Assembly: GCA_951813045.1 (NCBI GenBank)
Contig: CATOTF010000002.1
Location: 3,286,001 to 3,350,000 of the forward strand
Direction of reading: 5' to 3'
From: an uncultured Rhizobiaceae bacterium
GTDB taxonomy: Bacteria > Pseudomonadota > Alphaproteobacteria > Rhizobiales > Rhizobiaceae
DNA: 64,000 nucleotides
Below the pieces are notes generated by a model, which saw nothing but the letters and a program-made list of their open reading frames with translations, made no database searches and was not told the DNA's origin. How positions within the stretch are numbered: position 1 is the stretch's first letter; each line of letters begins with the position of its first letter. A program made the translations under genes and the position numbers. This document shows, in pieces, positions 14,672 to 33,647 of the stretch.

Positions 14672-14737
14672 TCTGACCGTCGCGGAGTAAAATTCCGCAC
14701 TCTGACACCTTGTGCTTGTGAGTATTAGGTGGGGAAG

Positions 14738-16237
14738 ATGTATTCTGTGGATTTGTATAGTCGGGTGCGTCGAGCGTGCCATGTGGATGGGAAGAACAAT
14801 AGCGAGGTGGCCCGTTTGTTCGGGATTGATCGCAAAACCGTGGCGAAGATCCTGAAGCACTCGGTTCCGCCCGGTTATCAAAGAACGACCGCGCCTGTTC
14901 GCCCGAAGTTGGATCCGTTTGTTGGGATAATTGATCAGATCCTGAAAGACGACAAAAAGGTCATCAAAAAGCAACGGCACACAGCCAAGCGTATTCATGC
15001 GCGGTTACGGGATGAGCACGGGTTCACTGGCGGGATCACCATTGTCACTGATTATGTGCGTGAGAAGCAAAGACGAACCCAGGAGGTGTTTGTTCCTCTG
15101 GTTCACGCGCCCGGCCATGCTCAGGTCGATTTTGGTGAGACGTTCGGCGTGATCGACGGTGTCGAACGCAAGCTGCATTACATCGCTATATCGTTGCCGC
15201 ATTCGGATGCGTTCTTCATGAAGGCGTATCCGGCGGAAACAACAGAAGCCTTCTGTGACGGTCACAATGCTGCGTTTGCTTTCTTCGGCGGTGTGCCGTT
15301 GTCGATGCTCTACGACAACACCGTGATTGCAGTTGCAAAGATCCTGGGCGGTGGCAAACGGATACGCACGAGAACTTTCTCAGAGCTACAATCGCACTAT
15401 CTGTTTGAGGATAAGTTTGGTCGCCCTGGCAAAGGCAATGATAAAGGGAATGTCGAAGGCGTCATTGGTTACGGTCGCAGGAACTTTCTCATCCCAGCCC
15501 CACGGTTCGACAGCTTTGATGCCTTGAACGCCTGGTTGGAAGAATGCTGCCTGAAGCGTCAGGATGATGTTGTTCGCGGACATGGTGAGAGTATTGGTGA
15601 ACGATTGCTGAGAGACCTGGACGCGCTGATGGCATTGCCCCCAACGCCATACGACGCGTGTGAAAAGTTTAGCACGCGGGCAACGTCAATCTCGATGATC
15701 CGCTACCGCAATAATGATTACTCCGTTCCTGTCGCCTTTGCCCATCATGAGGTTCAGGTTCGCGGTTACATCCATGAGGTTGTGATTGGCAGTGGAACCG
15801 AGATTATTGCCCGCCATCGTCGGTCTTATGAGAAGGCAGACATGATCTTCGACCCGCTTCACTATCTGCCCTTGCTGGAACAAAAGGTAGGTGCTCTCGA
15901 TCAGGCGGCACCATTGCAAGGCTGGGGTTTACCCGATGCATTTGCGATCCTTCATCGTTTATTAGAAGCCCGCATGGGTAAGGCGGGAAAACGCGAGTAT
16001 GTTCAGATCCTGCGTCTGCTGGAAACTTTTGAGCTGGAGCACGTTCACGCCGCAATCCAACAAGCTTTGGATCTGGGTGCCATTGGCTATGATGCGATCA
16101 AGCACCTTATTCTGTGCCGGATCGAGCGGCGACCGCCCAGGCTTGATCTCGACATCTACCCCTATTTGCCCAAAGCGGTGGTCGAGACGACAAAACCTGC
16201 CAGCTATGCCGTGCTGTTGTCGGAGGCGGCAGCATGA
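14738..16237 (+). CDS. istA: IS21-family transposase IstA (copy A)
   Basis: About 499 residues from the ATG at 14738; a GTG nine bases upstream is possible. N-terminal HTH (SEVARLFGIDRKTVAKILK) then an rve-type integrase core with DDE residues in HAQVDFGE, LYDNTVIA and GNDKGNVEGVIGY. It catalyses the strand transfer, assisted by IstB. Its sequence is identical to copies B and C over the visible parts. Confidence 0.95.
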   Translation: MYSVDLYSRVRRACHVDGKNNSEVARLFGIDRKTVAKILKHSVPPGYQRTTAPVRPKLDPFVGIIDQILKDDKKVIKKQRHTAKRIHARLRDEHGFTGGITIVTDYVREKQRRTQEVFVPLVHAPGHAQVDFGETFGVIDGVERKLHYIAISLPHSDAFFMKAYPAETTEAFCDGHNAAFAFFGGVPLSMLYDNTVIAVAKILGGGKRIRTRTFSELQSHYLFEDKFGRPGKGNDKGNVEGVIGYGRRNFLIPAPRFDSFDALNAWLEECCLKRQDDVVRGHGESIGERLLRDLDALMALPPTPYDACEKFSTRATSISMIRYRNNDYSVPVAFAHHEVQVRGYIHEVVIGSGTEIIARHRRSYEKADMIFDPLHYLPLLEQKVGALDQAAPLQGWGLPDAFAILHRLLEARMGKAGKREYVQILRLLETFELEHVHAAIQQALDLGAIGYDAIKHLILCRIERRPPRLDLDIYPYLPKAVVETTKPASYAVLLSEAAA

Positions 16238-17010
16238 ACGACACTGTTACCGATACACCGCAAGTTCTACTCAAACATCATCTGACCAAACTTCGGCTGC
16301 CAACCTTCCAGAGTGAATATACCAAACAGGCCCAACAATGTGCCGCTGAGAATAAGGATCATGTCCAATATCTCCTGCGGTTATGTGAGTTGGAGCTGAT
16401 TGAACGTGAGCGCCGAATGGTGGAGCGACGCATCAAAGCTGCGAAGTTCCCGGCAACCAAGAGCCTCGACAGCTTTGACTTCAAAACGATCCCGTCAGTG
16501 AACAAGGTGCTCGTGATGGAACTGGCCCGTTGCGAGTACGCTGCGAAACGCCAAAACATCATCGCGTTAGGACCAAGTGGAACCGGCAAAACCCATGTTG
16601 CCCTCGGCCTTGGACTGGCTGCCTGCCAAAAGGGGATGAAAGTCCGCTTCACCACGGCTGCTGCACTGGTTCATGAGATGATCGAGGCCGTTGATGAACG
16701 TCGCTTGCAACGGCATCAAAAACAACTGGCAGCTCAAGACCTGCTGATCATTGACGAACTGGGCTTCGTCCCTCTCTCCAAAACCGGGGCGGAGTTGCTG
16801 TTCGAAGTAATCAGCCAACGGTATGAACGCGGTTCCATCATCATCACATCCAATCTACCATTCGACGAATGGACAGAGGTCTTCGGATCAGAACGCCTAA
16901 CGGGCGCAATACTCGACCGGCTGACACACCACGTCCACATCCTGGAGATGAATGGTGAAAGCTACAGGTTGCACCAGAGCCGAAAACAAAAATCTGTTCA
17001 AATCAACTGA
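16234..17010 (+). CDS. istB: IS21-family helper ATPase IstB (copy A)
   Basis: 258-residue AAA+ ATPase: Walker A in ALGPSGTGKTHVALGLG, Walker B in LLIIDELGFVPL, and sensor-like IIITSNLPFDEW. It selects and remodels target DNA for IstA. Its ATG overlaps the istA stop (ATGA), so it is translationally coupled. Confidence 0.95.
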   Translation: MNDTVTDTPQVLLKHHLTKLRLPTFQSEYTKQAQQCAAENKDHVQYLLRLCELELIERERRMVERRIKAAKFPATKSLDSFDFKTIPSVNKVLVMELARCEYAAKRQNIIALGPSGTGKTHVALGLGLAACQKGMKVRFTTAAALVHEMIEAVDERRLQRHQKQLAAQDLLIIDELGFVPLSKTGAELLFEVISQRYERGSIIITSNLPFDEWTEVFGSERLTGAILDRLTHHVHILEMNGESYRLHQSRKQKSVQIN

Positions 17011-17289
17011 CACTAAACCAGATCAAAAACACAAACGTCCCAAAATCTGGCCAATTTTACTCCGGGATCAAGACCCATTTTAGGCTGGGATTGACAACTG
17101 ATTGCATAACAGGGTAATTTCATTTCATCTTCACCATCTTGGGCCGAAGATGAAGCATTTCAAACACAAGAGAACTAATGGGGAATAGTCAGGATACAAA
17201 ATGAATAGGGTCGCACTTAATTGCGCTTGCTTTCATTTCCAAGGCTGCGGCGTTACAACAAGCGTCATCATCCGTCTTATGATTTTCCA

Positions 17290-18063
17290 ATGACTCTGCC
17301 GATCTCCGTTTTTATCATTACACGCAATGAGCAAGCCCGCATCGGCAAGACTATTGAAGCCGTGCGCGGATGGGTAACCGAAGTGATTGTCGTTGATTCA
17401 GGATCAATCGACGACACTGTCTCGATTGCCAAGGCGTTGGGAGCTAAAACATTTCACCACGATTGGGCAGGGTATGGCGCACAAAAACGTTTTGCTGAAG
17501 ACCAGTGTTCGTGTAACTGGTGGTTTAATGTTGATGCGGATGAAGTTGTCACTGCGCAATTGCGCAGTGAGTTGGAAAGCTTATTTCGCGATGGAGATCC
17601 AGCGCCATGCGCGTTTAAAATCCGCATTCCCTATGTTTATCCAGGTGAAGAAACACCCCGCCGTTGGTTTCAGGACTACAATGTCGAACGGCTATATCAT
17701 CGGTCGGTTGGGCGCTATAGGGACCATCCTGTCTATGACAGGGTTGTGCTGGAAGAAGGGGTGCGGGTGCGGCAATTGACGGCACCACTCGCCCATTTTG
17801 CCGTGCTTGATTGGTCTTCCATGATGGCCAAAGCCAATGCCAATTCAGGTAGCAATATTGAGAAGCTCGCGCTGAAACCGATCTGGCAGCTGAAACTCAG
17901 GCTGTTATTCGGGTTTCCGCTCAATTTCATTCGAAATTACGTATTTCGCGCGCATATACTGGGGGGCAGCAAAGGGTTTATTTTTGCGCTCAACACTGCC
18001 TACACACGTACAATGCGCATTGCCAAGGCACTGGAATTGAAACAGAACCGTGATGCGCGGTGA
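17290..18063 (+). CDS. Family 2 glycosyltransferase, LPS core (WaaE-like)
   Basis: GT-A fold transferase of 257 residues starting at ATG 17290 (MTLPISVFIITRNEQARIGK). Nucleotide-sugar and metal motifs: VVDSGSIDDTVSIA and NWWFNVDADEVV. The C-terminal part (RWFQDYNVERLYHR, HPVYDRVV) matches the lipopolysaccharide core glucosyltransferase group. Cytosolic, membrane-associated by basic residues. It stands alone between IS21 copy A and the tRNA; upstream sequence 17097-17289 shows nothing recognisable. The exact sugar is not determined. Confidence 0.8.
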   Translation: MTLPISVFIITRNEQARIGKTIEAVRGWVTEVIVVDSGSIDDTVSIAKALGAKTFHHDWAGYGAQKRFAEDQCSCNWWFNVDADEVVTAQLRSELESLFRDGDPAPCAFKIRIPYVYPGEETPRRWFQDYNVERLYHRSVGRYRDHPVYDRVVLEEGVRVRQLTAPLAHFAVLDWSSMMAKANANSGSNIEKLALKPIWQLKLRLLFGFPLNFIRNYVFRAHILGGSKGFIFALNTAYTRTMRIAKALELKQNRDAR

Positions 18064-18217
18064 AGATGCCTAGCGTTTATTAGCTGGGAAAATCGACATA
18101 AAAATAATTGTCAAAAATTTGGTATTTTTTGTCCGCGATGGGGTTACATATAATATCATTCCGCTCTATATCCACCAAGTCGTCTGGTAGCAGGATTATC
18201 CGCTCCACCGACAGTGT

Positions 18218-18294
<77 letters not shown>

Positions 18295-18404
18295 AAAATT
18301 CAATAAAATCAATAAATTAGAAATTGATTTGATTTTACGATTCTCTCGATATAGCCTTACCCAACCCTTACCCAAATTACCCAAGAGGCTCTGGAGGTGT
18401 TGGA

Positions 18405-19544
18405 ATGAGAGAAAAACACACAATTCTGGGTGGTAAAGTGTATCTTTATCATCGGGAAACTGGTGATTCGTGGTATTGCTCAACTTATCTTGAGGGAAAA
18501 AATCGGCGAGCGACCACCAAAGAAACAAGTCTCAGCAAAGCCAAGGATTTTGCTGAGGACTGGTATCTGGGTTTGCGTGGCAAGCTAGTGGCGGGTGAAA
18601 TCACCAACGAAAAAACATTCAAACAGGCTGCTGCAAAATTTGAGGTAGAATACGAAGTCATAACCGAAGGAGAGCGCAGTACCAAATGGGTACAGGGTCA
18701 CAAGGATCGCATACGACTGCACCTCAATCCATTTTTTGGCAGCAAGGGCTTGTCAGAAATAACCGCCGGGCTAGTGCAAGAGTATCGCGCCCATCGAATT
18801 TCGAATGGAAGGAATGGTAAGGCCCCAGCTCGTAGCACAATCCACGATGAAATCGTTACACTTCGGCAGGTTTTAAAGACTGCCCTGAGACACCAATGGC
18901 TAGCAGGTCTGCCAGACCTTTCCACACCATACCGCGCTTCAGGTAAAGTATCTCATCGGGCATGGTTTTCACCGAAAGAATACAAACAACTGTACGAGGC
19001 GACTCGTCAAAATGTCCGTGATGCAAAAGGGAGTGCTCACGAAAAGGTTGCCGCGCAGCTGCACGACAAAATATTGTTCATGGCAAACACAGGTATTCGT
19101 CCTGACGAAGCCAACTGGCTTGAATACCGGGACGTCGAGATCGTTGAAGATAACGCCACCGGCGAAACGATCCTCGAAATTGAAGTGCGCGGTAAACGTG
19201 GAGTGGGATATTGCAAAAGCACAACCGGTGCTGTTCGACCATTTGAAAGAATGAAAGAGCGCAATCAACCGACACCGACCGACCGTCTCTTTCCGGTAGA
19301 TCACAAAAAACAGTTTAATCGGATTTTGTCAGAACAAGGTTTAAAAATTGACCGTGAGGGCAATCGGAGAACGTTGTACAGCCTTAGGCATAGCTATATT
19401 TCATTTAGGCTACTTGAAGGTGCTGATATCTATCAGATCGCCAAGAACTGCCGTACCAGTGTCGAGATGATTGAGAAGCACTATGCGGCTCACCTCAAGA
19501 ATAGTTTGGATGCAGCGGCAATCAATGTACGGAAACCGAGATAA
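18405..19544 (+). CDS. Tyrosine recombinase (island integrase)
   Basis: 379-residue phage-type integrase. N-terminal arm-binding and SAM-like core-binding parts precede the catalytic domain, with Arg in ANTGIRPDEANWL, the H-x-x-R region in LYSLRHSYISFRLLEG and the nucleophile Tyr in MIEKHYAAHL. ATG at 18405 follows TGGAGGTGTTGGA. Position directly downstream of the fMet tRNA in the same direction marks the left end of an integrated island. The matching right attachment site is not in the window. Confidence 0.92.
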   Translation: MREKHTILGGKVYLYHRETGDSWYCSTYLEGKNRRATTKETSLSKAKDFAEDWYLGLRGKLVAGEITNEKTFKQAAAKFEVEYEVITEGERSTKWVQGHKDRIRLHLNPFFGSKGLSEITAGLVQEYRAHRISNGRNGKAPARSTIHDEIVTLRQVLKTALRHQWLAGLPDLSTPYRASGKVSHRAWFSPKEYKQLYEATRQNVRDAKGSAHEKVAAQLHDKILFMANTGIRPDEANWLEYRDVEIVEDNATGETILEIEVRGKRGVGYCKSTTGAVRPFERMKERNQPTPTDRLFPVDHKKQFNRILSEQGLKIDREGNRRTLYSLRHSYISFRLLEGADIYQIAKNCRTSVEMIEKHYAAHLKNSLDAAAINVRKPR

Positions 19545-19656
19545 AACAACATATGCTCCGAGCTGAAGCATATGCCCCCAAGCCGCGAAATATAGTCACG
19601 CAAACTTAACGACATTAGATTTTACACAACATTAGGACGACGTTGGTATTTAGGCA

Positions 19657-20193
19657 TTACCGTTCCCAATCCTTATTGATCATGATTTTTTCCAGATCAT
19701 CGACAGTTGGTGGCGTTTCTCGCCTCGATAATCGACCAAGTTGATACAATTTCCCTTCCTCCTCGAAAAGACTCCAGTAACAATTCTGCCCAACCACCAT
19801 GAAATCAATCATCTGAATGTCGTGAAACTGAGCCAACACTCGAACCTTATCAATTACGCTGCGGTCTGCATCAGACGGAAACGCTTCACCAGATGGGTGA
19901 TTGTGAACCAGTACAAATCCGCTGGCGAGTGTAAGGAGAGCCTGCCGCATCAAATACTTCAGATCAACGATGGCAGAATCGGCTGCACCCAAAGCTAGGT
20001 GTTGAAATACAGGCTCATCGAGTTGGTCGGACACGAAGATGCCAAGTACCTTTTCCTGAGTGGCATCTTCCAGGGATTTAACCGCTTCATACACTTGCCG
20101 GGGTTCACGGATTTGCTCTCGCAGGAGATTTTTGTATTCACTTTCTTTGAAGCGGATATCGAGTTCTTTGAGGTAACCATTATCTGGTTGCAT
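19657..20193 (-). CDS. RadC-like JAB-domain protein
   Basis: 178 residues with a JAMM/MPN metalloprotease-like core: VLVHNHPSGEAFPSDAD gives the H-x-H...S-x-x-D zinc signature. It lacks the N-terminal HhH part of housekeeping RadC and resembles the short RadC-like proteins of mobile islands, whose biochemical role is unsettled. It converges on the integrase with about 110 bases between them. Confidence 0.8.
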   Translation of the reverse strand: MQPDNGYLKELDIRFKESEYKNLLREQIREPRQVYEAVKSLEDATQEKVLGIFVSDQLDEPVFQHLALGAADSAIVDLKYLMRQALLTLASGFVLVHNHPSGEAFPSDADRSVIDKVRVLAQFHDIQMIDFMVVGQNCYWSLFEEEGKLYQLGRLSRRETPPTVDDLEKIMINKDWER

Positions 20194-20649
20194 AGACGCT
20201 CATTGTATCACAAACAGTAGCTCTTGCGTCGCCTTTGGCGAGCTATTTCTGACGTGGGCGGATTGCCTGCAAAATTAGGCACAAGCCAACCAACTTCGTG
20301 ATCAAGGCCCAAGCCTGACCTTGGTGCTACGTCCCCAAATTTTGATCGATTTCGCCAAAGCCGCCATTCAACTCTGGACCGAGATTGGCGAGCTGGAGGT
20401 CAGCACTGGAGACCTTTCGACATTTCCTTGTTTGGCACATGGTCTTTCTGCGACACATTAGATGACATCGCGATATATCAAAATCGAGTACTCGATGATT
20501 ATTGCGATCACCGAATCTAGCGCATTCGGGTCGTTCATTTATCGTTGTAATTCAGACGGTTCAAGCGCGTCGCGCAATGCGAATGTCGATATGCGGAACT
20601 CCGACGCGATTGTGTATGGACAAAGTTCGGACTTGGACAGCCCTGTAAC
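20194..20649. other. Intergenic region in island, no clear gene
   Basis: About 455 bases. A plus-strand open stretch near 20333-20461 reads PQILIDFAKAAIQLW and stops at a TAG, possibly a decayed gene end, but no start or family is recognisable. Otherwise nothing seen. Confidence 0.4.
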
Positions 20650-22305
20650 TCACCCATCGGTTTCGGATTTCACCACAACTGGAATTTTGTTTTTGTCACC
20701 CATTGGAACCCCAGCCATTGCAGCGTATTTCATCAGCCGCACGATGTTGGGGTTGATCGGGAAATTAATATCGCCGGCGAGCGTATAATCTGGAAAATTC
20801 TTACGCAGAGTTTCCGCCGCAGCGCGCGCTTTCTTCTCGTTGCCGAGAATCATATGAGTTGCAGCCAAATAGTTGAATTTCTTATGGTGCGGAGGCGCGT
20901 TTTCCAAAGCCACAATTGTCGCCATGTAATCGCCCGCCCCAAATGCGGCAGTCGCCAGGCCAAGTTTATGCCAGGGCGGCCCTTTGGGGTTGAGATCAAT
21001 CGCTTTTTTTCCCCAGGCTACTGGCTGTTTGCCGGTTATCCCAACAGCCATGCTTTGCCATGCAGCCATAGCGAGGATATCCGGATTGTTTGGGGAGTAC
21101 TCCACGGCTGTAAAAACTGATCTACGGGCCGCTTCAACCCGCCCTTCCGTCAGATGGACAGATGACATCATAAATACGATGAAGGCATCGTGCGGTTCAA
21201 GTAGATAGGCTTTGCGGACGGCTATTCGGCTCTCGTTGTTCAGCCTAGCTTGAACCTCATCTTTGCTGACATCAGCAATCCAGATTTTCATCGCACCGAT
21301 CATTCCCCAGGCACGGGCATAACTCGGATCTATTTCTACGGCATTGTAGAAATGTTGAAGAGCCTTGCCATAGTCCGCCTTGGACCACATAATTGAGCTT
21401 ACTCCAAGGAGGTATTGTTCATAGGCCGTCAGGCTCGGCCCAGGTTTCCCCCTTGCATTTTCGGCGATTGCGCGGTTAAGGCCACCAAACCAGAAATGAG
21501 CAACTAGGCTGGCATTAGCCCGGGTGACGATATCGTCCTGTATGATCAGATAATCTTCAGACTTACGATGCCATTTTTCAGACCAAACTACATTTCCGTC
21601 TTCCACATCCAGAAGACGAGCAGAAATGCGCAAATGGTCGTGATCAGCTTCAACTTCGCCTTTCAAAACAAAAGTTGCGTTGAGCTTTTTCCCTGCTTCA
21701 AACGCTTCAAGTTTAGAGACGTCATAGGTCGTTTCAGCACCGATAACCCCGAATTCCTGATTTTTCGCAAGTTCATTGGCAATGTCGATAGAAAGCCCTC
21801 GCCCAAGCCTCTTCCACCGGTCGCTACCAGTTAGGTTATCAAACGGCAACACGGCAATTGTTGGCTGGTGCGAGTTTTTGATGATGCCTGAGAATACACC
21901 CCACGCACCGACAAGAAATGCCAGTAGCAGAACCACTACGGCAATAAACGGTCGTGGCAAAATCGACAACATTCGAGCACTGGGACTATTAGGTGTGGCT
22001 AATGCCAGCTTATACCCCTTCTTCGGTACTGTTTGAACAATACGGTGATCCTTGTCTCCAACTGTACGCCGAATATCTGCAATACACTGAAACAAGCTAT
22101 CGTCGGTCACATTCAGGTCGGCCCACACGGTTTCAACCAAATGATCCCGCCCCACAACCTGGCCCCGTTGTTTGACAAGTTGCTGCAACACCTGAAGGGA
22201 CTGGGGGCGTAGGGAAATACTCTCTCCATTCTCACTCAACAACCGGCAATCTGCAGAATCAAATCGAATGGATCCAATTTTAATGTTGGCCTCTATTTGT
22301 TCCAT
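20650..22305 (-). CDS. ToxR/CadC-type membrane transcriptional regulator with TPR sensor
   Basis: 551 residues. N-terminal OmpR-like winged helix (about 5-95: LRPQSLQVLQQLVKQRGQVV, IVQTVPKKGYKL), one membrane helix (about 112-135, FIAVVVLLLAFLVGAWGVF), then a FlgO/TolB-like domain (PTIAVLPFDNLTG ... LKGEVEADHDHLRISARLLD) and C-terminal TPR-like helices (YGKALQHFYNAVEIDPSYARAW). This is the CadC/adenylate-cyclase-accessory architecture, binding DNA from the membrane. Start taken at ATG 22305 rather than the TTG at 22380. It is divergent from the two paralogous unknown genes and is their likely regulator. Confidence 0.85.
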   Translation of the reverse strand: MEQIEANIKIGSIRFDSADCRLLSENGESISLRPQSLQVLQQLVKQRGQVVGRDHLVETVWADLNVTDDSLFQCIADIRRTVGDKDHRIVQTVPKKGYKLALATPNSPSARMLSILPRPFIAVVVLLLAFLVGAWGVFSGIIKNSHQPTIAVLPFDNLTGSDRWKRLGRGLSIDIANELAKNQEFGVIGAETTYDVSKLEAFEAGKKLNATFVLKGEVEADHDHLRISARLLDVEDGNVVWSEKWHRKSEDYLIIQDDIVTRANASLVAHFWFGGLNRAIAENARGKPGPSLTAYEQYLLGVSSIMWSKADYGKALQHFYNAVEIDPSYARAWGMIGAMKIWIADVSKDEVQARLNNESRIAVRKAYLLEPHDAFIVFMMSSVHLTEGRVEAARRSVFTAVEYSPNNPDILAMAAWQSMAVGITGKQPVAWGKKAIDLNPKGPPWHKLGLATAAFGAGDYMATIVALENAPPHHKKFNYLAATHMILGNEKKARAAAETLRKNFPDYTLAGDINFPINPNIVRLMKYAAMAGVPMGDKNKIPVVVKSETDG

Positions 22306-22390
22306 ATTTTGAATGCCCTTTATGGATGCTTGGGTAATCAGCAGAGTATTCTCTCGAGAGAAGCATGTAAACTTATCCAATTTTCAAGTA

Positions 22391-22414
22391 ATTTCAGGAA
22401 ATTTCAGGTGAAAT
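22391..22414. promoter_or_regulatory. Repeated operator-like motif in the CadC-type divergent promoter
   Basis: ATTTCAGGAA at 22391 is followed at once by ATTTCAGGTGAAAT at 22401-22414. This is a tandem 10-base repeat whose second copy is a perfect palindrome (ATTTCA-GG-TGAAAT). It lies between the regulator start and gene 22564, a natural place for the regulator to bind. Assignment is by position only. Confidence 0.5.
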
Positions 22415-22563
22415 ATCAAGACAATCAGATGTTCTTGTGAATACGATTAACTCCAATTTCAAACCACTTGAGCGCAGAATATTGAACCAGGAGGGAGGAG
22501 AAAAAAGCGCTTTAGTCTGACTGCCTTTGAATAATCCCACAACTGTGAATTGGAGACATAGTC

Positions 22564-23439
22564 ATGAATATTGAAGTACCAGCCTCCCCGTTTGTGAGCA
22601 GTTACCAAGGTGTGGACGACGTTGTCCTGTCCTTAACTGGTGTTGCTCCACCAGCGAACATCAGATTGACTTCACAAATACCGAAAACGCCAGAATATCA
22701 AACCGGCGGCGGTCGAACGACGAAAACCACATTACAGATAATGCTGGAGTTAGGGTTCTCCAGCTTCATCGAGATTGCGGCGAAAACAAATCTGGAAGCA
22801 TATTTTTTTCTATCAGACACCGGTGCTTATTTCGAGCTTGAAAACCCAGACAAGGACAGCATCATTACCTCGGCCAAATATGGTGTTGCTGTCCGAGTTG
22901 GAATTGCCGCGTTCAATCTGGACGCAAGTGTAAGTGTAAGCGCTCCCTCGGTAGCCGCGGCTGCGACACTTAAACTGGCCAGCACAACCTATGAGGTAAT
23001 GACCTTGGGTATAGGGCTTGACGCCCTGCACGCAACAACCCCACTCATCAACAACACCACCGGACCCTATGACCTTAGCACGTTGGATACGATTGCGCTG
23101 GTTCAATCTGCAATCGATGACATCATATTCGAACAGACGAACAGCCTGGTTCCGATTCTTATGAGCGTCAATGTGGACACAAATCGTTTGGCAAGGGTCC
23201 TGTCAAACGATGCGACTTCAGATTATTCCGAATTTGTCCGGTCACAAATCTACGGAGTTAAACAAGCTTGGTATTACAACAGTTTGGAGGATGCCATCGC
23301 CGATATTAAGCCGGATATTAATCCAGAAGTACTTCGCACGATTTATTCCGACGTTTTGAATCTGGCTCCAGGTGTCAAACCAGAGCCAGGTTCCGAAGCA
23401 TTCAGAAAAGCTGAAGAATTGGTCTTCGCAGGCCGCTAA
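22564..23439 (+). CDS. Unknown protein A of a paralogous pair
   Basis: 291 residues with no signal peptide and no cysteines. A central hydrophobic, beta-prone stretch alternates small residues (YGVAVRVGIAAFNLDASVSV, then SVAAAATLKLAS), and the C-terminal part is helical, with AWYYNSLEDAIADI. The following gene has the same layout: MxLGF(S/T)F(I/V), then GV..RV.(I/L)A..N(I/L)D, V-A-A-A-A, and W-Y-x-x-SLE(D/E)A. ATG at 22564 with GGAG nine bases ahead. No known family recognised; an interaction, pore-like or structural role is only a guess. Confidence 0.75.
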   Translation: MNIEVPASPFVSSYQGVDDVVLSLTGVAPPANIRLTSQIPKTPEYQTGGGRTTKTTLQIMLELGFSSFIEIAAKTNLEAYFFLSDTGAYFELENPDKDSIITSAKYGVAVRVGIAAFNLDASVSVSAPSVAAAATLKLASTTYEVMTLGIGLDALHATTPLINNTTGPYDLSTLDTIALVQSAIDDIIFEQTNSLVPILMSVNVDTNRLARVLSNDATSDYSEFVRSQIYGVKQAWYYNSLEDAIADIKPDINPEVLRTIYSDVLNLAPGVKPEPGSEAFRKAEELVFAGR

Positions 23440-23469
23440 AAATCAATCGACACAGTTAAGGAGAAGAAA

Positions 23470-24306
23470 ATGGCTTTAAAATGGGAAATGGTTGATCCGG
23501 ATTTGTACAGACCCACAAAGGAGAGTGCTAAGTATTTAACAAGAGTCCCGCTCAAAGTTGGCGATGAAAATATTCCATACTCTTCGGCAACAATCAGCGG
23601 ATTTGTATTTTCCGCAGAAGCAATGATTTCGTTGGGGTTTGGAACATTTGTCCAATCAAATCTGGAAGTCGGTGTACTGTTCCACGTTCTTGAGGTTGCC
23701 GCCTACAAAAATGTCGTCAAGGTCGTGGATCAAAACAAGTCGGAGATCAGGCTTGAGCAAACTGGCGTTGGTTTCCGGGTGGCCCTCGCCGTTTCAAACA
23801 TTGACTTTGATCTTGCTGTCAATGTGGGACAAGTGGCGGCGGCGGCCGAAATCAAGAATGCCAATGTAAATATTGACGTCAAAGTATATGGCGCTGCACT
23901 TGAGCAATTGGGCTTCCTGAAGAAACTGACTCAGCTGCAAAAGTTTGACTCCAATTATCTTCAGTTGGTCAGCACCTCAGCGGCTAATTTGACAAAATAC
24001 TTGGCAAAAAACGGCGATAATATTAGTCCGGATACGATGAAAATTTCACCGCTGGCGGTCCCTAACCAGTCTCCTTTTAATTCCTCGTATTCCATCGACG
24101 AAGGAATTAACAGTATTTGGTACGGTCGATCACTCGAAGAAGCGCTGAAATGGGCATCAACCGAACCCCGTCGTTGGGAAAAAGTCGACGCACTGACGGT
24201 AGAGGCTACTTACAGATCATTCGGGATACTGAGTGACATTCAAAAACCGAGCGAACGCCAAAGAGACGATGCATATCAGGCGCTTGTCGCCGGGGACTTC
24301 TACTGA
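23470..24306 (+). CDS. Unknown protein B of a paralogous pair
   Basis: 278 residues, paralogous to the preceding protein along its length: MISLGFGTFVQSNLEV, GVGFRVALAVSNIDFDLAV, VAAAAEIKNAN and SIWYGRSLEEALKW align in order. No signal peptide. Strong ribosome site AAGGAGAAGAAA before ATG 23470, 30 bases after its partner, so the two form an operon. Divergence between the two is large, which suggests old duplication and distinct roles, for example two subunits of one assembly. Family unknown. Confidence 0.75.
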   Translation: MALKWEMVDPDLYRPTKESAKYLTRVPLKVGDENIPYSSATISGFVFSAEAMISLGFGTFVQSNLEVGVLFHVLEVAAYKNVVKVVDQNKSEIRLEQTGVGFRVALAVSNIDFDLAVNVGQVAAAAEIKNANVNIDVKVYGAALEQLGFLKKLTQLQKFDSNYLQLVSTSAANLTKYLAKNGDNISPDTMKISPLAVPNQSPFNSSYSIDEGINSIWYGRSLEEALKWASTEPRRWEKVDALTVEATYRSFGILSDIQKPSERQRDDAYQALVAGDFY

Positions 24307-24340
24307 ATAAATGCAGGCCGTGGGTTCGCCGCGATTTATT
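24306..24340 (+). terminator. Possible hairpin terminator after the paralogous pair
   Basis: Outer stem AATAAAT/ATTTATT encloses an inner CGTGG/CCGCG stem with loop GTTCG. It begins at the stop codon of the second gene. No long T run follows, so efficiency is uncertain. Confidence 0.35.
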
Positions 24341-24551
24341 TATGTCGTGCTGAAGAGATTATGTTTCACTAACCTTGCTTTTTTTCATCAGCCATCTGCT
24401 GAAGACCAACCGGGCATGCGATTAATTTTTGTCATTACGACAGACATCTCATGTCCGGGAGATATGCACATATATTGTTTCTGTGTTTTACGAATTGATC
24501 TGCCGCGGCACTTCGCAGTACTGACAACTGTGTTGTTCTTTCCTGTTCACT

Positions 24552-24773
24552 TTGCGACCGGATAAGTTTCACACTGTTGAGCGATTGCTGACGTTCGAAT
24601 CCTATCGTTTTGACTGGCTCAAAGTCGCAAGTAGAGAGTCCAATCTCGTTCTCAATGGGGGCGGCAAAGGACACCACGACGACCGCGCCGTTGCGCTTGC
24701 GCTCGGTTATTTGTCGACAACCCACCTGCAACAGCAATCAATTCGGGTCAGCAAACTTGAAGGCTGGTACTGA
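24552..24773 (+). pseudogene. Phage terminase-like C-terminal remnant 1
   Basis: The frame reads FESYRFDWLKVASRESNLVL followed by NGGGKGHHDDRAVALALG and stops at 24773. The G-x-x-HDD-RAVALAL pattern is the end of the RNase H-like nuclease domain of large terminases. Only this piece survives; no ATPase part is found. A second remnant with the same local sequence lies at 26065. Homology call is by motif and moderate. Confidence 0.45.
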
Positions 24774-24860
24774 TCAACGACGATCCGCACGCTCCTCAAC
24801 GAGAGACGTCGTTATTCCTCAAACACCCGACCGCCAGAGAGCGTCATAGCGAGGCATTTT

Positions 24861-24905
24861 TGTTTGCGGGCATGATTGGTCATCGAACCTGCTGACCCGC
24901 ACAGC
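24861..24905. repeat. 45-base hairpin repeat, copy 1
   Basis: Begins TGTTTGCGGGCATGATTGGT and ends GACCCGCACAGC. TGCGGG pairs with CCCGCA and an inner GGT pairs with ACC. Copy 2 at 25980-26024 has the same length with about seven differences, and its inner stem is changed on both sides (GGGT/ACCC), consistent with a conserved fold. The pair flanks the gene at 25022-25771. Confidence 0.6.
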
Positions 24906-25021
24906 ACGGCGATCTGGCTGAGAGCGGGCGGCATTGCGACACTGAAGGCTGCTCAGAACGCCGAACACAAAAAGGACCTCGACGAAGCGAAGCCCTCTCG
25001 TTGTTTAAACGTCGCGCATGA

Positions 25022-25771
25022 TCATTTGCGAGTGTCGAGCACGACACCCCCATTTTCCCACGCTCCTTCGGCACGTATCGGGAACGCGACATAGTCAGAA
25101 CGTACCATCGCCCCGAACGAGTTTTGCGAGTCCAAATATCCCGAAACCGTGTAAACGCATTTTTGGGTTTTGTCGTTGAATTTTGCGCTGACTATCGGCC
25201 GATCCCAGAACGGGAAATCAGCCGAGGACGGTGACTTCAATTGCATTTTGATTATCAATTCAGCTTTCGATTGAGCATAAGCTTTTTCATTGTCCGACCC
25301 ACAAGCGAGTTTGCGAGGATTTGAAGGCGTCGCGACGACGGGCGCTACCACAGGTTTGGGATTAAGCTTTTCAGTCGCCGCGCGTTCCGCAAGCTCGACC
25401 TTTCGTTTTTCGCGCGTCGCGGCTCGTTCTGCCTCGGCTCGTTCGATTGCAGCCTGACGACCAGCCGCCGCACGTTTGGCCTCCTCGAGCTCCTTTTGAA
25501 GCACAAGCGATCGGGCGGCGACGCGAGCAGCTGACTCCTCTTCCTCGGCACGTTTAAGCACAGCCAATTTGCGACGGTGTTCGATGGCTGCATTGTGTGC
25601 TTCCGCGGTTTCAATTTGCGTCGGCGTCATATCGGTCGTGATCACAGTCGGAATGTCGCGATTTGGGTCGTTGCTGTACATTGCAAAGCCGACACCGAAT
25701 GAAACAAAACAGCCAGAGACGATGGCACTCCATTTTACGAGTTTCCAAATTTTCAGGATTAGAGTTTTCAT
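25022..25771 (-). CDS. Envelope-anchored coiled-coil protein with C-terminal NsFGA-type domain
   Basis: 249 residues. N-terminal uncleaved signal/membrane anchor (LVKWSAIVSGCFVSFGVGFAMY), then a long Glu/Ala/Arg-rich coiled coil (about 60-135, including AERAATREKRKVELAERAAT), a proline linker, and a compact domain (about 155-249) with LKSPSSADFPFW, CVYTVSGYLDSQNSFGAMVR. That last pattern recurs in small bacterial exported proteins of unknown role. ATG at 25771 behind AAGGAAAG. It sits between the two hairpin repeats, suggesting it arrived as a cassette. Function unknown. Confidence 0.7.
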   Translation of the reverse strand: MKTLILKIWKLVKWSAIVSGCFVSFGVGFAMYSNDPNRDIPTVITTDMTPTQIETAEAHNAAIEHRRKLAVLKRAEEEESAARVAARSLVLQKELEEAKRAAAGRQAAIERAEAERAATREKRKVELAERAATEKLNPKPVVAPVVATPSNPRKLACGSDNEKAYAQSKAELIIKMQLKSPSSADFPFWDRPIVSAKFNDKTQKCVYTVSGYLDSQNSFGAMVRSDYVAFPIRAEGAWENGGVVLDTRK

Positions 25772-25786
25772 AATGGTGCTTTCCTT

Positions 25787-25888
25787 CTAAAGGATTGTTG
25801 CGGCGATCAAAGTGCCCAACACAAAAGCGAGGGTGATCAGCAAAATGATTTTGACCGTGTCGACCAATAATCGACACGCAAGTTCCAC
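25787..25888 (-). CDS. Possible 33-residue membrane peptide
   Basis: GTG-initiated frame ending 15 bases before the start of the coiled-coil gene. It encodes one strongly hydrophobic helix (VKIILLITLAFVLGTLIAA) after a short polar N-terminus. Its position and pure membrane-helix composition suggest a real leader or partner peptide, but no start signal is compelling. Confidence 0.3.
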   Translation of the reverse strand: MELACRLLVDTVKIILLITLAFVLGTLIAATIL

Positions 25889-25979
25889 AGATAAGCGTCA
25901 CGGGACGCGGTTCAAAAAATTAAAACGTTGTCATTGTCCTGCATGGAAGTTTCCATTTGGTTTATGGCAGCGGACGATG

Positions 25980-26024
25980 TGTTTGCGGGCACATAGGGTC
26001 GTCGAACCCGCTGACCCGCACAGC
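25980..26024. repeat. 45-base hairpin repeat, copy 2
   Basis: Begins TGTTTGCGGGCACATAGGGT and ends GACCCGCACAGC, in the same orientation as copy 1. Nested stems TGCGGG/CCCGCA and GGGT/ACCC. About 84 percent identical to copy 1. Confidence 0.6.
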
Positions 26025-26064
26025 GCATCAATTTGACTGTGAGCTGGCACGTTGCTCATGCCGA

Positions 26065-26163
26065 ACACTGACGTATCCGAACCTGCTGAACGAAATCGCA
26101 TCATTCGAATTGAAAGCGACGTCTGCTGGCAACCTTGTGCTTGATGGCGGCGGTATCCGATGA
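26065..26163 (+). pseudogene. Phage terminase-like remnant 2
   Basis: Reads LTYPNLLNEIASFELKATSA then GNLVLDGGG before a stop at 26161-26163. It matches the same terminase region as remnant 1 (LL..E..SF...GNLVL.GGG) but lacks the HDD part. It lies just after hairpin copy 2. Gene decay after duplication or two separate phage relics are both possible. Confidence 0.4.
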
Positions 26164-26167
26164 GTAT

Positions 26168-26638
26168 TCACGCTGGAAGCTTGGACCAATCATTTAGGGC
26201 GGCATTGGGCACTTGCCATCGGCGAATATCTCCATTGCTTGGATTCCGCTTATTCCAGTCGGATGCATCCCATAAGTTGCGGATTTCATGTGAAGTAAGC
26301 ACATACATCTCCACTTGGTGAGGATCCGGAAGCCCGGTTGGCTCTCTCGGTGCTGAGATTAGAACCCAAATTGCGCTAATCTCTGTATCTGGTCGGGTAC
26401 GAACGAACCAAGTTGGTCTTTTTTGACGGTCGGCTTTTACTTCCACACCAAAGGAAGTGCCGTTTGGACTGTGGGCTATCAGATCGCATTGACGACTGTT
26501 GTTGTTTGTTGGCTCAACCTGATAACCAAGTTCACCAAGCCTGTCGGCCACAAGTACTTCACCGATAGCGCCGGTCGACTTGGCCAAAATTTTTTCCAAC
26601 AGCTTTGGGTGTTGCCGCGCAATTTGTTGAATATCCAA
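26168..26638 (-). CDS. PD-(D/E)XK nuclease-like protein
   Basis: 156 residues. The restriction-endonuclease-like core is visible: Glu in GAIGEVLVADRLGELGY, then Asp in NSRQCDLIAHS and the E-x-K in FGVEVKADRQKRPTW. Such proteins cut or bind DNA; island copies often belong to defence or mobile-element functions. The apparent start is TTG at 26638; no better start is visible. It is followed upstream by a uracil-glycosylase-like gene in the same direction. Could also be an uncharacterised DUF4365-type protein. Confidence 0.65.
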   Translation of the reverse strand: MDIQQIARQHPKLLEKILAKSTGAIGEVLVADRLGELGYQVEPTNNNSRQCDLIAHSPNGTSFGVEVKADRQKRPTWFVRTRPDTEISAIWVLISAPREPTGLPDPHQVEMYVLTSHEIRNLWDASDWNKRNPSNGDIRRWQVPNAALNDWSKLPA

Positions 26639-26821
26639 AGGCTACATCCCTATACTCAGCACCCGATTTTAACGTTGGGCGGTTTCAGAAATTTATCACA
26701 ACTAATCACGCAGTTGATTCAACAAGTACTGTATTTCCCACATCGCAAAATCAATCCGGGTGCTACTTTCCACGTTTTGATTGGCTCGGGAAATATTGCC
26801 TCGACGGGCAGGCCAGCGATC

Positions 26822-27478
26822 TCATCTTCGCATCGACTGAGCGAGTCGATCCCAATCACGGTCAACCCGTCCGGCAACCCTATTTCTATTGTTAGTTCCA
26901 AGTACGCCCGGGTGAGCAACGCAGTGGATCATAGTGTTTGTAAACTTAAATGAGGAGGCGATAGCATCATCCATTTTTGGTGAACCTCTCAATCCCACTG
27001 CGCGCATTAAGGCTTTGAATGTTTGAAGTCCGAGACAAACCGCAATTTTTGGACACACAATCTCGATCTCCTTGAGTGTGAAACGTTTTGCACAATCGAC
27101 CATATCGTTCATCTGAATATTAGCAGACGCGTTGCCGGATTTCACGTATGGGAACAGGTTTGTTAGGTAACATTCTGATCGAGTCACTCCCAAATGTCGC
27201 TCCAGCAATTGGTTAAGATTCTGATTGGTCGGCAGGTTCGGATTGAATCCCAAATGAGCCGTAGTTTGATCGGGAGGGTTTTGGCTCAGGTGGTCACAGC
27301 TCGACCAGTCCTGCCCGATAATCATAATGTCTGTATCTATGTTACAGCCTGACTTGGTCCAAGGACTAATGTGGTCGCATTCATATAAACCATTGTGAAA
27401 GTCGCCAATGCAGGCATAACCTTCAATTCTGGTGTACCGACGCTGCAGGGCGAGCGCTTTCAAGGATTCCTGTTTCAT
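26822..27478 (-). CDS. Uracil-DNA glycosylase superfamily protein
   Basis: 218 residues. Motifs of the UDG fold in order: DIMIIGQDWSS (water-activating loop), ECYLTNLFPYVKSG, VCPKIAVCLGLQTFK and the C-terminal HCVAHPGVLGTNNRNR (H-P-x DNA-intercalation loop). An N-terminal cysteine/histidine stretch (CIGDFHNGLYECDHISPW) precedes it. The start at 27478 places AGGAG six bases ahead. The active-site loop (GQDW) differs from Family 1 GQDPY, so substrate may be another base or modified DNA. Neighbour of a nuclease-like protein in a genomic island. Confidence 0.7.
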   Translation of the reverse strand: MKQESLKALALQRRYTRIEGYACIGDFHNGLYECDHISPWTKSGCNIDTDIMIIGQDWSSCDHLSQNPPDQTTAHLGFNPNLPTNQNLNQLLERHLGVTRSECYLTNLFPYVKSGNASANIQMNDMVDCAKRFTLKEIEIVCPKIAVCLGLQTFKALMRAVGLRGSPKMDDAIASSFKFTNTMIHCVAHPGVLGTNNRNRVAGRVDRDWDRLAQSMRR

Positions 27479-27730
27479 GCCCATCTCCTACACATTGGGG
27501 GTAGATAGAACCTTAACGAGCGTTCAGATGTGTTTGTTCGACACTCTGACAAATCACAGTTTTGGCACTTGGCAGCTATTCATCGAACGACATACTTATG
27601 GGCGACGTAGAGTGCCAATACGGGCAGTTCAGTTATGGTCGGATTGTCAATCCCAGCCTAAAATGGGTCTTGATCCCGGAGTAAAATTGGCCAGATTTTG
27701 GGACGTTTGTGTTTTTGATCTGGTTTAGTG

Positions 27731-28507
27731 TCAGTTGATTTGAACAGATTTTTGTTTTCGGCTCTGGTGCAACCTGTAGCTTTCACCATTCATCTCCAGG
27801 ATGTGGACGTGGTGTGTCAGCCGGTCGAGTATTGCGCCCGTTAGGCGTTCTGATCCGAAGACCTCTGTCCATTCGTCGAATGGTAGATTGGATGTGATGA
27901 TGATGGAACCGCGTTCATACCGTTGGCTGATTACTTCGAACAGCAACTCCGCCCCGGTTTTGGAGAGAGGGACGAAGCCCAGTTCGTCAATGATCAGCAG
28001 GTCTTGAGCTGCCAGTTGTTTTTGATGCCGTTGCAAGCGACGTTCATCAACGGCCTCGATCATCTCATGAACCAGTGCAGCAGCCGTGGTGAAGCGGACT
28101 TTCATCCCCTTTTGGCAGGCAGCCAGTCCAAGGCCGAGGGCAACATGGGTTTTGCCGGTTCCACTTGGTCCTAACGCGATGATGTTTTGGCGTTTCGCAG
28201 CGTACTCGCAACGGGCCAGTTCCATCACGAGCACCTTGTTCACTGACGGGATCGTTTTGAAGTCAAAGCTGTCGAGGCTCTTGGTTGCCGGGAACTTCGC
28301 AGCTTTGATGCGTCGCTCCACCATTCGGCGCTCACGTTCAATCAGCTCCAACTCACATAACCGCAGGAGATATTGGACATGATCCTTATTCTCAGCGGCA
28401 CATTGTTGGGCCTGTTTGGTATATTCACTCTGGAAGGTTGGCAGCCGAAGTTTGGTCAGATGATGTTTGAGTAGAACTTGCGGTGTATCGGTAACAGTGT
28501 CGTTCAT
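27731..28507 (-). CDS. istB: IS21-family helper ATPase IstB (copy B)
   Basis: 258 residues, identical to copy A: Walker A ALGPSGTGKTH, Walker B LLIIDELGF. Overlaps istA by four bases. Confidence 0.95.
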   Translation of the reverse strand: MNDTVTDTPQVLLKHHLTKLRLPTFQSEYTKQAQQCAAENKDHVQYLLRLCELELIERERRMVERRIKAAKFPATKSLDSFDFKTIPSVNKVLVMELARCEYAAKRQNIIALGPSGTGKTHVALGLGLAACQKGMKVRFTTAAALVHEMIEAVDERRLQRHQKQLAAQDLLIIDELGFVPLSKTGAELLFEVISQRYERGSIIITSNLPFDEWTEVFGSERLTGAILDRLTHHVHILEMNGESYRLHQSRKQKSVQIN

Positions 28508-30003
28508 GCTGCCGCCTCCGACAACAGCACGGCATAGCTGGCAGGTTTTGTCGTCTCGACCACCGCTTTGGGCAAATAGGGGTAGATGTCGAGATCAAGC
28601 CTGGGCGGTCGCCGCTCGATCCGGCACAGAATAAGGTGCTTGATCGCATCATAGCCAATGGCACCCAGATCCAAAGCTTGTTGGATTGCGGCGTGAACGT
28701 GCTCCAGCTCAAAAGTTTCCAGCAGACGCAGGATCTGAACATACTCGCGTTTTCCCGCCTTACCCATGCGGGCTTCTAATAAACGATGAAGGATCGCAAA
28801 TGCATCGGGTAAACCCCAGCCTTGCAATGGTGCCGCCTGATCGAGAGCACCTACCTTTTGTTCCAGCAAGGGCAGATAGTGAAGCGGGTCGAAGATCATG
28901 TCTGCCTTCTCATAAGACCGACGATGGCGGGCAATAATCTCGGTTCCACTGCCAATCACAACCTCATGGATGTAACCGCGAACCTGAACCTCATGATGGG
29001 CAAAGGCGACAGGAACGGAGTAATCATTATTGCGGTAGCGGATCATCGAGATTGACGTTGCCCGCGTGCTAAACTTTTCACACGCGTCGTATGGCGTTGG
29101 GGGCAATGCCATCAGCGCGTCCAGGTCTCTCAGCAATCGTTCACCAATACTCTCACCATGTCCGCGAACAACATCATCCTGACGCTTCAGGCAGCATTCT
29201 TCCAACCAGGCGTTCAAGGCATCAAAGCTGTCGAACCGTGGGGCTGGGATGAGAAAGTTCCTGCGACCGTAACCAATGACGCCTTCGACATTCCCTTTAT
29301 CATTGCCTTTGCCAGGGCGACCAAACTTATCCTCAAACAGATAGTGCGATTGTAGCTCTGAGAAAGTTCTCGTGCGTATCCGTTTGCCACCGCCCAGGAT
29401 CTTTGCAACTGCAATCACGGTGTTGTCGTAGAGCATCGACAACGGCACACCGCCGAAGAAAGCAAACGCAGCATTGTGACCGTCACAGAAGGCTTCTGTT
29501 GTTTCCGCCGGATACGCCTTCATGAAGAACGCATCCGAATGCGGCAACGATATAGCGATGTAATGCAGCTTGCGTTCGACACCGTCGATCACGCCGAACG
29601 TCTCACCAAAATCGACCTGAGCATGGCCGGGCGCGTGAACCAGAGGAACAAACACCTCCTGGGTTCGTCTTTGCTTCTCACGCACATAATCAGTGACAAT
29701 GGTGATCCCGCCAGTGAACCCGTGCTCATCCCGTAACCGCGCATGAATACGCTTGGCTGTGTGCCGTTGCTTTTTGATGACCTTTTTGTCGTCTTTCAGG
29801 ATCTGATCAATTATCCCAACAAACGGATCCAACTTCGGGCGAACAGGCGCGGTCGTTCTTTGATAACCGGGCGGAACCGAGTGCTTCAGGATCTTCGCCA
29901 CGGTTTTGCGATCAATCCCGAACAAACGGGCCACCTCGCTATTGTTCTTCCCATCCACATGGCACGCTCGACGCACCCGACTATACAAATCCACAGAATA
30001 CAT
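28504..30003 (-). CDS. istA: IS21-family transposase IstA (copy B)
   Basis: Identical protein to copy A, with HTH and DDE core intact (HAQVDFGE, LYDNTVIA, NDKGNVEG). Start at ATG 30003; GTG at 30012 is the alternative. The element appears fully functional. Confidence 0.95.
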   Translation of the reverse strand: MYSVDLYSRVRRACHVDGKNNSEVARLFGIDRKTVAKILKHSVPPGYQRTTAPVRPKLDPFVGIIDQILKDDKKVIKKQRHTAKRIHARLRDEHGFTGGITIVTDYVREKQRRTQEVFVPLVHAPGHAQVDFGETFGVIDGVERKLHYIAISLPHSDAFFMKAYPAETTEAFCDGHNAAFAFFGGVPLSMLYDNTVIAVAKILGGGKRIRTRTFSELQSHYLFEDKFGRPGKGNDKGNVEGVIGYGRRNFLIPAPRFDSFDALNAWLEECCLKRQDDVVRGHGESIGERLLRDLDALMALPPTPYDACEKFSTRATSISMIRYRNNDYSVPVAFAHHEVQVRGYIHEVVIGSGTEIIARHRRSYEKADMIFDPLHYLPLLEQKVGALDQAAPLQGWGLPDAFAILHRLLEARMGKAGKREYVQILRLLETFELEHVHAAIQQALDLGAIGYDAIKHLILCRIERRPPRLDLDIYPYLPKAVVETTKPASYAVLLSEAAA

Positions 30004-30112
30004 CTTCCCCACCTAATACTCACAAGCACAAGGTGTCAGAGTGCGGAATTTTACTCCGCGACGGTCAGATTACCCAACCATTTCTGTGGTCATTTTGTCT
30101 CCGGGATTCACA

Positions 30113-31311: not shown

Positions 31312-31794
31312 ATGAGGGACGTCGCCCTCTATGTAAGCCTCTTTGCCATCGGCCATTCCATTACCATTCTCTTGGGCGTTTGGTACGGCTGGGGCATCAA
31401 CGCCTATATTATTGACGCGATCATCGGGCTTTCGGTGGTATACAAAGCGCTTGATAACCTCGGCGCATTTCAAAAATGGTTCGGGTTCCAGCCCAACACC
31501 AAAGCTGCGACGCTGATCTTCGGCCTGTTCCATGGCACAGGTTTGGCGTCCAAAATCCTTGAATACAAGATCGCCGACGACGGCCTGATGACCAACCTTC
31601 TAGCCTTCAACGTTGGCGTCGAATTTGGACAACTTCTCGCGCTTTTCGTGATCTTGATAGTCATGGGGTATTGGCGTCGAAGCCCTAACTTTATGCGTCA
31701 AGCCAACTACGCAAACATCATCATGGTCTTTCTTGGCCTCTTGCTGACATACCAACAAATCACCGGCTATCTTGGCCTACATGCTCACGCCTAA
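31312..31794 (+). pseudogene. HupE/UreJ-2 family membrane protein, 5' truncated
   Basis: 160 visible residues with about four membrane helices (SLFAIGHSITILLGVWYG, LIFGLFHGTGLASKIL, FVILIVMGYW, NIIMVFLGLLLTYQQ). The H-S-I-T and G-x-x-H-G-x-G patterns fit HupE/UreJ-type metal permease-like proteins. Full members begin with a further helix carrying G-x-D-H; that part is missing because the gene starts at the IS debris. It is followed 16 bases later by the membrane-anchor gene. It may still be translated from ATG 31312, but likely non-functional. Confidence 0.7.
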
Positions 31795-31810
31795 AGGATT
31801 GGAAAAAACA

Positions 31811-32416
31811 ATGAACAACGCACCAAAGCCCAATATCGAAGACTTACCTTCCAAGGCACAATTAGGCCGTTCAACAATCATCGCGGGCATCGGAGCCGTA
31901 GCCATTGGCGTCATGGTTTACCTGCCGGCCGAATACGGAAAGGACCCCACAGGCGTAGGTAGTGTGCTTGGTCTAACGCAGATGGGTGTAATCAAACAAC
32001 AGCTTGCAGCGGAAGACGAGATACAGCATGGCTCGGACAAATCTTCATCGCTGATTGACAGTGTCCTTGGCATTTTTACCTCTGCTGCTCATGCGCAGGA
32101 AGCATGGAAGGACGAGACTACCTTCACTCTTGAACCGGGTGCCTCCTTCGAAATCAAAGCCACCATGGAAAAGGGGGCCACGCTCAACTACGTATGGGTG
32201 GCAACGGGAGGTCGCATCAACTTCGATCTCCATGCCCATTCTGGCAGTGAAAAGGTGACCTACGAAAAGGGGCGCGGAAAGACATCTGGTAAAGGAAGTT
32301 TTGAAACACCTTTCGCCGGAGATCACGGCTGGTTCTGGCGCAATCGAGATAATGTTGACGTGACTGTTAAACTGCAACTGCTCGGCGACTACAGCGAGAT
32401 TGTTCGAAGCAAGTGA
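31811..32416 (+). CDS. Transmembrane anchor protein of metal islands
   Basis: 201 residues from ATG 31811 (MNNAPKPNIEDLPSKAQLGR). One N-terminal helix (STIIAGIGAVAIGVMVYLPA) anchors a periplasmic domain with FTLEPGASFEIKATMEKGAT, NFDLHAHSGSEKVTY and GDHGWFWRN. Proteins of this type accompany HupE/UreJ-like genes in metal-resistance regions; their biochemical role is not established. Ends before a strong hairpin. Confidence 0.7.
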   Translation: MNNAPKPNIEDLPSKAQLGRSTIIAGIGAVAIGVMVYLPAEYGKDPTGVGSVLGLTQMGVIKQQLAAEDEIQHGSDKSSSLIDSVLGIFTSAAHAQEAWKDETTFTLEPGASFEIKATMEKGATLNYVWVATGGRINFDLHAHSGSEKVTYEKGRGKTSGKGSFETPFAGDHGWFWRNRDNVDVTVKLQLLGDYSEIVRSK

Positions 32417-32424
32417 CAGTATTA

Positions 32425-32460
32425 TTTGGCCACCCGTGCATAAAGTTGCGGGCGGCCAAA
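32425..32460 (+). terminator. Hairpin terminator
   Basis: Stem TTTGGCC-a-CCCG pairs with CGGG-c-GGCCAAA around a 12-base loop, eight bases after the preceding stop codon. No long T run follows, so it may act with flanking sequence. Confidence 0.55.
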
Positions 32461-33638: not shown

Positions 33639-33647
33639 AAATTGCAC

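What the first reader, a model, noticed from the sequence alone, without database searches (positions are those of the whole stretch)
20650..24306. CadC-type regulator facing two paralogous proteins of unknown family: candidate new system
Seen: membrane regulator with TPR sensor, an operator-like repeat, then two co-directional genes that align along their length but match no family I know. Both have a beta-prone alternating hydrophobic core without signal peptide and a shared C-terminal W-Y-x-x-SLE(D/E)A motif. Inference: a two-component structural assembly switched by a membrane sensor, carried as island cargo.
Basis: partly seen in the sequence, partly recalled or inferred. Interest (0 to 1): 0.7.

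Follow-up and report, generated by a model that had tools for sequence, protein, structure and literature searches.

The report
Orphan protein pair beside membrane regulator
Two related bacterial genes of no recognised family sit next to a common type of membrane-bound gene switch beside an integrase; the pair is real, but no relatives turned up in the collections searched and what it does is unknown.

Summary
The observation largely holds. A divergent regulator (20650-22305, minus strand) has an OmpR-type DNA-binding domain, one transmembrane stretch and TPRs. Facing it are two co-directional genes, A (22564-23439) and B (23470-24306). A and B are paralogs: 24% identity, E 4e-9; Smith-Waterman 126 against at most 64 in 1000 shuffles. 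The signal lies in a central core, weakly in the C-terminus, not in the N-termini. Neither has a convincing match in Pfam, NCBIfam, PADLOC, PHROGs or PDB sequences. No relative was found in the plasmid, phage (B only), viral and genome collections, nor by profile in any of 15 genus, 384 family, 385 class and 398 phylum genomes (overlapping sets) beyond the own genome. So co-occurrence with the regulator cannot be tested. The 10-bp tandem triplet between the genes is real. Best reading: an orphan two-gene operon in an integrase-bearing, IS21-rich segment at tRNA-Met, probably controlled by the adjacent regulator. That A and B assemble is plausible but untested; AlphaFold2 gave no usable model (pLDDT 32 and 39). 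Interest is modest.

The parts
22564..23439 (+). gene A, 291 aa, orphan protein, paralog of B
   Evidence: ORF; GGAG upstream of the ATG; paralogy; no convincing family
23470..24306 (+). gene B, 278 aa, orphan protein, paralog of A; AAGGAG just upstream of the ATG, 30 bp after A
20650..22305 (-). transmembrane one-component regulator: Trans_reg_C, single TM stretch, LpoB/FlgO-like stretch (below Pfam cut-offs), TPRs; 551 aa from the ATG (a TTG extension to 22380 is possible)
22380..22409 (.). three head-to-tail 10-bp units ATTTTCAAGT/AATTTCAGGA/AATTTCAGGT, candidate operator
22412..22441 (-). weak sigma-70-like match (9 of 12) that could serve the regulator; such matches are not above chance in the region
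   Evidence: 2 found, 3.5 expected
24319..24333 (+). terminator-like stem-loop after B (weak evidence)
   Evidence: 5 found in 2.5 kb, 2.9 (sd 1.7) expected
18218..18294 (+). tRNA-Met(CAT), candidate integration site
18405..19544 (+). tyrosine recombinase/integrase beside the tRNA
   Evidence: phrog_1 E 1.7e-27; relatives on alphaproteobacterial plasmids
19657..20193 (-). RadC-like JAB protein between integrase and regulator
   Evidence: PF04002 E 2.3e-22

Best explanation
A two-gene operon confined to this genome among those searched, probably horizontally acquired. An ancestral gene duplicated in tandem and the copies diverged to about 25% identity, keeping a common, probably beta-rich core and a C-terminal motif while the N-termini became unrelated. 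The products are cytosolic or leave without a classical signal. The divergent membrane regulator most likely senses an envelope signal through its periplasmic part and binds the 10-bp tandem repeats to control its own gene and A-B. The shared core in two adjacent genes makes a heteromer of A and B the likeliest product. Shown: genes, paralogy, layout, repeats, lack of relatives in the sets searched, integrase and tRNA beside them. Inferred: regulation, heteromer, transfer, any function.
For: Paralogy and shared motif; 30 bp between A and B and ribosome-binding-like sequences; Trans_reg_C, TM and TPR regulator; repeat array, the only one of its kind in the window, its exact two-unit form found once in the genome; pair found only in the own genome: 1 of 15 genus, 1 of 384 family, 1 of 151 family with A alone as query, 1 of 398 phylum, and 1 true of 2 hits in 385 class genomes; tRNA and integrase; the six sister loci fetched at the same tRNA carry different genes on its 3' side, apart from one ABC-transporter relative at about 30%.
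Against: No direct evidence that the regulator acts on A-B. No attR: the 25-base tRNA end occurs once in the genome within 3 mismatches. Relatives of the regulator have other neighbours. The two-unit repeat pattern has 12 looser matches (2-3 mismatches) elsewhere in the genome, so it is not exclusive to this site. Without relatives, neither co-inheritance nor selection on the pair can be tested. Structure prediction failed.
Confidence: 0.4

Rival explanations
1. A and B are very diverged members of a known beta-rich fold or family (for example a lipid-binding, phage structural or pore-forming fold) that sequence profiles cannot reach; the novelty is only apparent.
For: B has weak PHROGs matches of unknown function: phrog_36080 E 0.005 (core 0.002, about 100 residues) and phrog_29820 E 0.006 (core 0.003, 32 residues). 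Only two sequences were available, so profiles and AlphaFold2 had little to work with.
Against: A is not listed for either cluster (the program's filters drop most matches above about 0.1). The phrog_36080 profile scores an ATP synthase gamma-like gene almost as well, E 0.008. No Pfam or NCBIfam match above cut-off. PDB sequence hits are at chance level, best E 0.073.
Confidence: 0.35
2. The regulator and the A-B pair are merely neighbours that arrived or rearranged separately; the regulator controls itself or distant genes.
For: In the 10 regulator loci inspected (28-34% identity) no A or B homolog is present. The repeats lie nearer to the regulator's ATG (about 74 bp) than to A's (about 154 bp). 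Identical IS21 copies lie on both sides.
Against: Divergent layout with a single 258-bp intergenic stretch and a repeat array inside it.
Confidence: 0.25
3. A and B are non-functional remnants on a decaying segment.
For: No relatives; 24307-25021 holds no ORF over 100 aa and matched nothing in plasmids; insertion sequences on both sides.
Against: Both frames are intact with ribosome-binding-like sequences, a lower GC at codon position 2 as in the other genes compared, though position 1 is lower than theirs, and a conserved shared core.
Confidence: 0.1

Closest known systems
ToxR/CadC-type transmembrane transcription regulators (TTRs; PMC10269533, abstract and part 1 of 2 of the Results read)
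   Same: N-terminal OmpR-type winged helix (Trans_reg_C), single TM stretch, C-terminal sensor part; that paper reports about 56% of TTRs as single-pass
   Different: Not a CadC ortholog by score (65.4 bits against 400) nor HilA/EilA (55.6 against 589); sensor part is LpoB/FlgO-like (sub-threshold) plus TPR; candidate operator is a head-to-tail 10-bp triplet, whereas E. coli CadC is described with two head-to-head AT-rich sites (PMC5430869, passages only)
phrog_36080 (phage protein cluster of unknown function)
   Same: weak profile match over about 100 residues of the B core (E 0.002-0.005)
   Different: A is not listed; an ATP synthase gamma-like gene scores nearly as well; unproven
tRNA-associated genomic islands with a phage-type tyrosine integrase
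   Same: integrase directly beside a tRNA-Met gene
   Different: no second attachment site found; island end not defined

Membership tests
CadC (NF007540 equivalog) | whole-protein score above NCBI's cut-off (400 bits) | tested here: not met
   65.4 bits
ToxR/CadC-like transmembrane one-component regulators | Trans_reg_C winged helix at the N-terminus | tested here: met
   PF00486 51.7 bits, cut-off 26.2
ToxR/CadC-like transmembrane one-component regulators | transmembrane segment between DNA-binding and sensor parts | tested here: met
   19-residue hydropathy mean peaks at 2.78 (window starting at residue 120), the only stretch above 1.6; hydropathy only, no dedicated predictor
ToxR/CadC-like transmembrane one-component regulators | control of the adjacent operon | not testable with these tools
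   needs expression or binding data
CadC sensor domain (PF18500 CadC_C1) | score above gathering threshold | tested here: not met
   14.6 bits, cut-off 25
phrog_36080 | both paralogs match the profile | tested here: inconclusive
   B E 0.002-0.005; A not listed, but filters drop most weak matches
tRNA-associated genomic island | integrase adjacent to a tRNA gene | tested here: met
tRNA-associated genomic island | duplicated tRNA 3' end as second attachment site | tested here: not met
   one genome match for the 25-base end within 3 mismatches; no repeated exact 14-20-mer from that end in the window; shorter repeats not tested

The most novel reading that the evidence does not exclude
A and B are the two subunits of a new protein family with a new fold that assembles into a hetero-oligomer, switched by a membrane sensor, and moves as a self-contained cassette between alphaproteobacteria.
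Probability: 0.1. Interest if true: 0.6.

Novelty: new member of a known kind. Interest (0 to 1): 0.3.

Why it matters
If true, two interacting paralogs under one membrane switch, with no relatives in the genomes sampled, would be a small self-contained system for studying how new protein families arise by duplication on mobile segments. As it stands it is a singleton orphan operon; such orphans are common in island cargo (recalled), and it becomes interesting only with relatives or a structure.

Tried and rejected
Homolog searches that found nothing real beyond the own genome: A in 151 family genomes; A1 in 385 class, 398 phylum, 15 genus and 384 family genomes, sets overlapping; A3 (core) in 143 genomes of another class; tblastn of B and A in plasmids and of B only in phages; viral-contig scans with A, B, A1 and A3 (130, 3, 122 and 122 pattern matches, none confirmed); genome-contig scans with A and A1 (133 and 97 pattern matches, none confirmed). 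The contig scans work from short patterns (two patterns only) and reach close relatives. The regulator in viral contigs: 6 pattern matches, none confirmed. Other phyla were not sampled by profile; E. coli genomes were not searched.

Hits examined and dropped: G183 (in frame in what reads as ribosomal protein L10); G193 for phrog_36080 (in frame in what reads as ATP synthase gamma); G1007 and G1102 (minus-strand frames with 3 and 1 stops, opposite what read as a TonB-receptor and flagellar genes). These gene names are my reading.

Pfam PCuAC on A (E 0.19; A core 0.092), NCBIfam TrsD on A (E 0.029, 14.2 bits against 200), PDB hits (best E 0.073, glycine-betaine-binding protein): rejected as chance. 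AlphaFold2 on both proteins: pLDDT 32.0 and 38.6, so no fold search was run. Bicomponent pore-forming toxin and phage tail readings were considered and left as unsupported. Paper searches looked for regulator and island background; none searched for A or B, so no claim is made about print.

Full report
Observation. The regulator, A and B lie where stated. The regulator has Trans_reg_C and TPR domains and a single TM stretch by hydropathy. A and B are 24% identical over 192 residues, E 4e-9; their Smith-Waterman score is 126 against a shuffle mean of 36 and a maximum of 64 in 1000. The similarity is carried by the core (0 of 1000 shuffles reach it) and weakly by the C-terminal part (14 of 1000); the N-termini show none (994 of 1000). 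Both have the W-Y-x-x-SLE(D/E)A motif. Neither has a TM stretch, and I see no signal peptide by eye. Beta-like alternation in the core is moderate: lag-2 z 3.2 and 1.8; the hydrophobic-moment test was weaker, with 57 and 26 of 500 shuffles as high.

Intergenic region. 258 bp separate the regulator's ATG from A's ATG. At 22380-22409 lie three head-to-tail 10-bp units, the only period-10 triple at that identity in 64 kb (a post hoc test, and arrays of other periods exist, for instance 12 bp at 59741). In the whole genome the two-unit pattern occurs once exactly; within 3 mismatches there are 14 sites, two of them this array, against 2 for the reversed control. The excess may partly reflect the palindrome GAAATTTC inside the pattern (inference). 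OmpR-type winged helices often bind direct repeats of about 10-11 bp (recalled). E. coli CadC is described with two head-to-head AT-rich sites (PMC5430869, passages). A reference title shown in PMC8517210 says that ToxR recognises a direct repeat; I did not read that cited paper.

Families. A and B have no assignment above cut-off in Pfam or NCBIfam and none at E 0.1 in PADLOC. PHROGs gives B weak matches to phrog_36080 (E 0.005; core 0.002), phrog_29820 (E 0.006; core 0.003) and lesser ones, none shared by A. The phrog_36080 profile was run over 249 phylum genomes and 14 controls: B and an ATP synthase gamma-like gene (E 0.008) were the only matches, and no control matched. I treat this as an unproven lead. 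PDB sequence searches are at chance.

Distribution. In the genome search the only real matches are the window's own two genes: 1 of 151, 1 of 398, 1 of 15, 1 of 384; 2 of 385 in the class, the second a ribosomal protein L10-like false positive; 2 of 143 in another class, both frames with stops. The sets overlap, so these numbers must not be added. Plasmids, phages (B only), viral contigs and genome contigs gave nothing, but the contig scans see close relatives only.

Regulator relatives. 17 of 247 family genomes, the own one included, have a match at E 1e-40 or better; at most five candidates per genome were scored. Of the 25 hits listed, one is the window's own gene. I fetched 10 loci covering 11 of the other 24; blastp of A and B against their ORFs of at least 90 aa gave nothing better than E 0.34.

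Context. tRNA-Met is followed by an integrase (phrog_1, E 1.7e-27). Its relatives were found in 25 plasmid records; four listed near-full-length ones are 52-62% identical, in Rhizobium, Novosphingobium and Asticcacaulis, and the two inspected carry other genes nearby. Then come a RadC-like gene, the regulator, A and B. The tRNA is found in 11 of 15 genus genomes, own included. Of these I fetched six sister loci: a relative of the window's glycosyltransferase (37-44%) lies beside the tRNA in three, in the window's orientation in only one; on the tRNA's 3' side, about 4.5 to 10 kb held, the only matches to window ORFs are an ABC-transporter relative (30-32%) in one locus. No second copy of the tRNA end was found. 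Identical IS21-type gene pairs in inverted orientation bracket 17011-27730. The host is placed near Rhizobiaceae by PhnI similarity of about 70%, a rough placement.

Structure. AlphaFold2 with two sequences failed (pLDDT 32.0 and 38.6), so the fold is open and the assembly idea untested.

Conclusion. This is a true orphan gene pair with an ordinary, distantly CadC-like regulator. Regulation and assembly are reasonable inferences. The novelty is the absence of relatives in the sets searched, which is also what prevents a functional conclusion.

Noticed in passing
14729-17010 (+), 27731-30012 (-), 62430-63938 (+): IS21-type istAB ORFs, the first two identical over 2282 bases and inverted, bracketing the tRNA, integrase, regulator and A-B; the third has an istA ORF identical over 1509 bases. 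IstB is 96% identical to one on a Sulfitobacter plasmid. Element ends were not mapped.
   Followed up: partly
59741-59799: Tandem array of 4.9 copies of the 12-bp unit TGCCTAAATCTG.
   Followed up: no
31312-39369: Genes with HupE/UreJ, cNMP-binding, MauE/glutaredoxin, CopD and multicopper oxidase domains: looks copper-related.
   Followed up: no
41180-45137: Proteasome-like protein near a circularly permuted ATP-grasp protein.
   Followed up: no
25022-27484: Three minus-strand ORFs beyond A-B: a 249-aa protein matching PHROGs of unknown function, a 156-aa protein that reads like a PD-(D/E)XK nuclease (my reading), and a uracil-DNA-glycosylase superfamily protein.
   Followed up: partly
L035 6430-7842 and 10604-12016: A second regulator of the same kind in the same genome is flanked by two ORFs of equal length (471 aa) whose first 60 residues are the same, perhaps an insertion sequence.
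   Followed up: no
whole genome, 12 sites outside the array: Loose matches (2-3 mismatches) to the two-unit repeat exceed the reversed control (14 with the array's two, against 2); several keep a GAAATTTC core. Could be a regulon or a palindrome effect.
   Followed up: no
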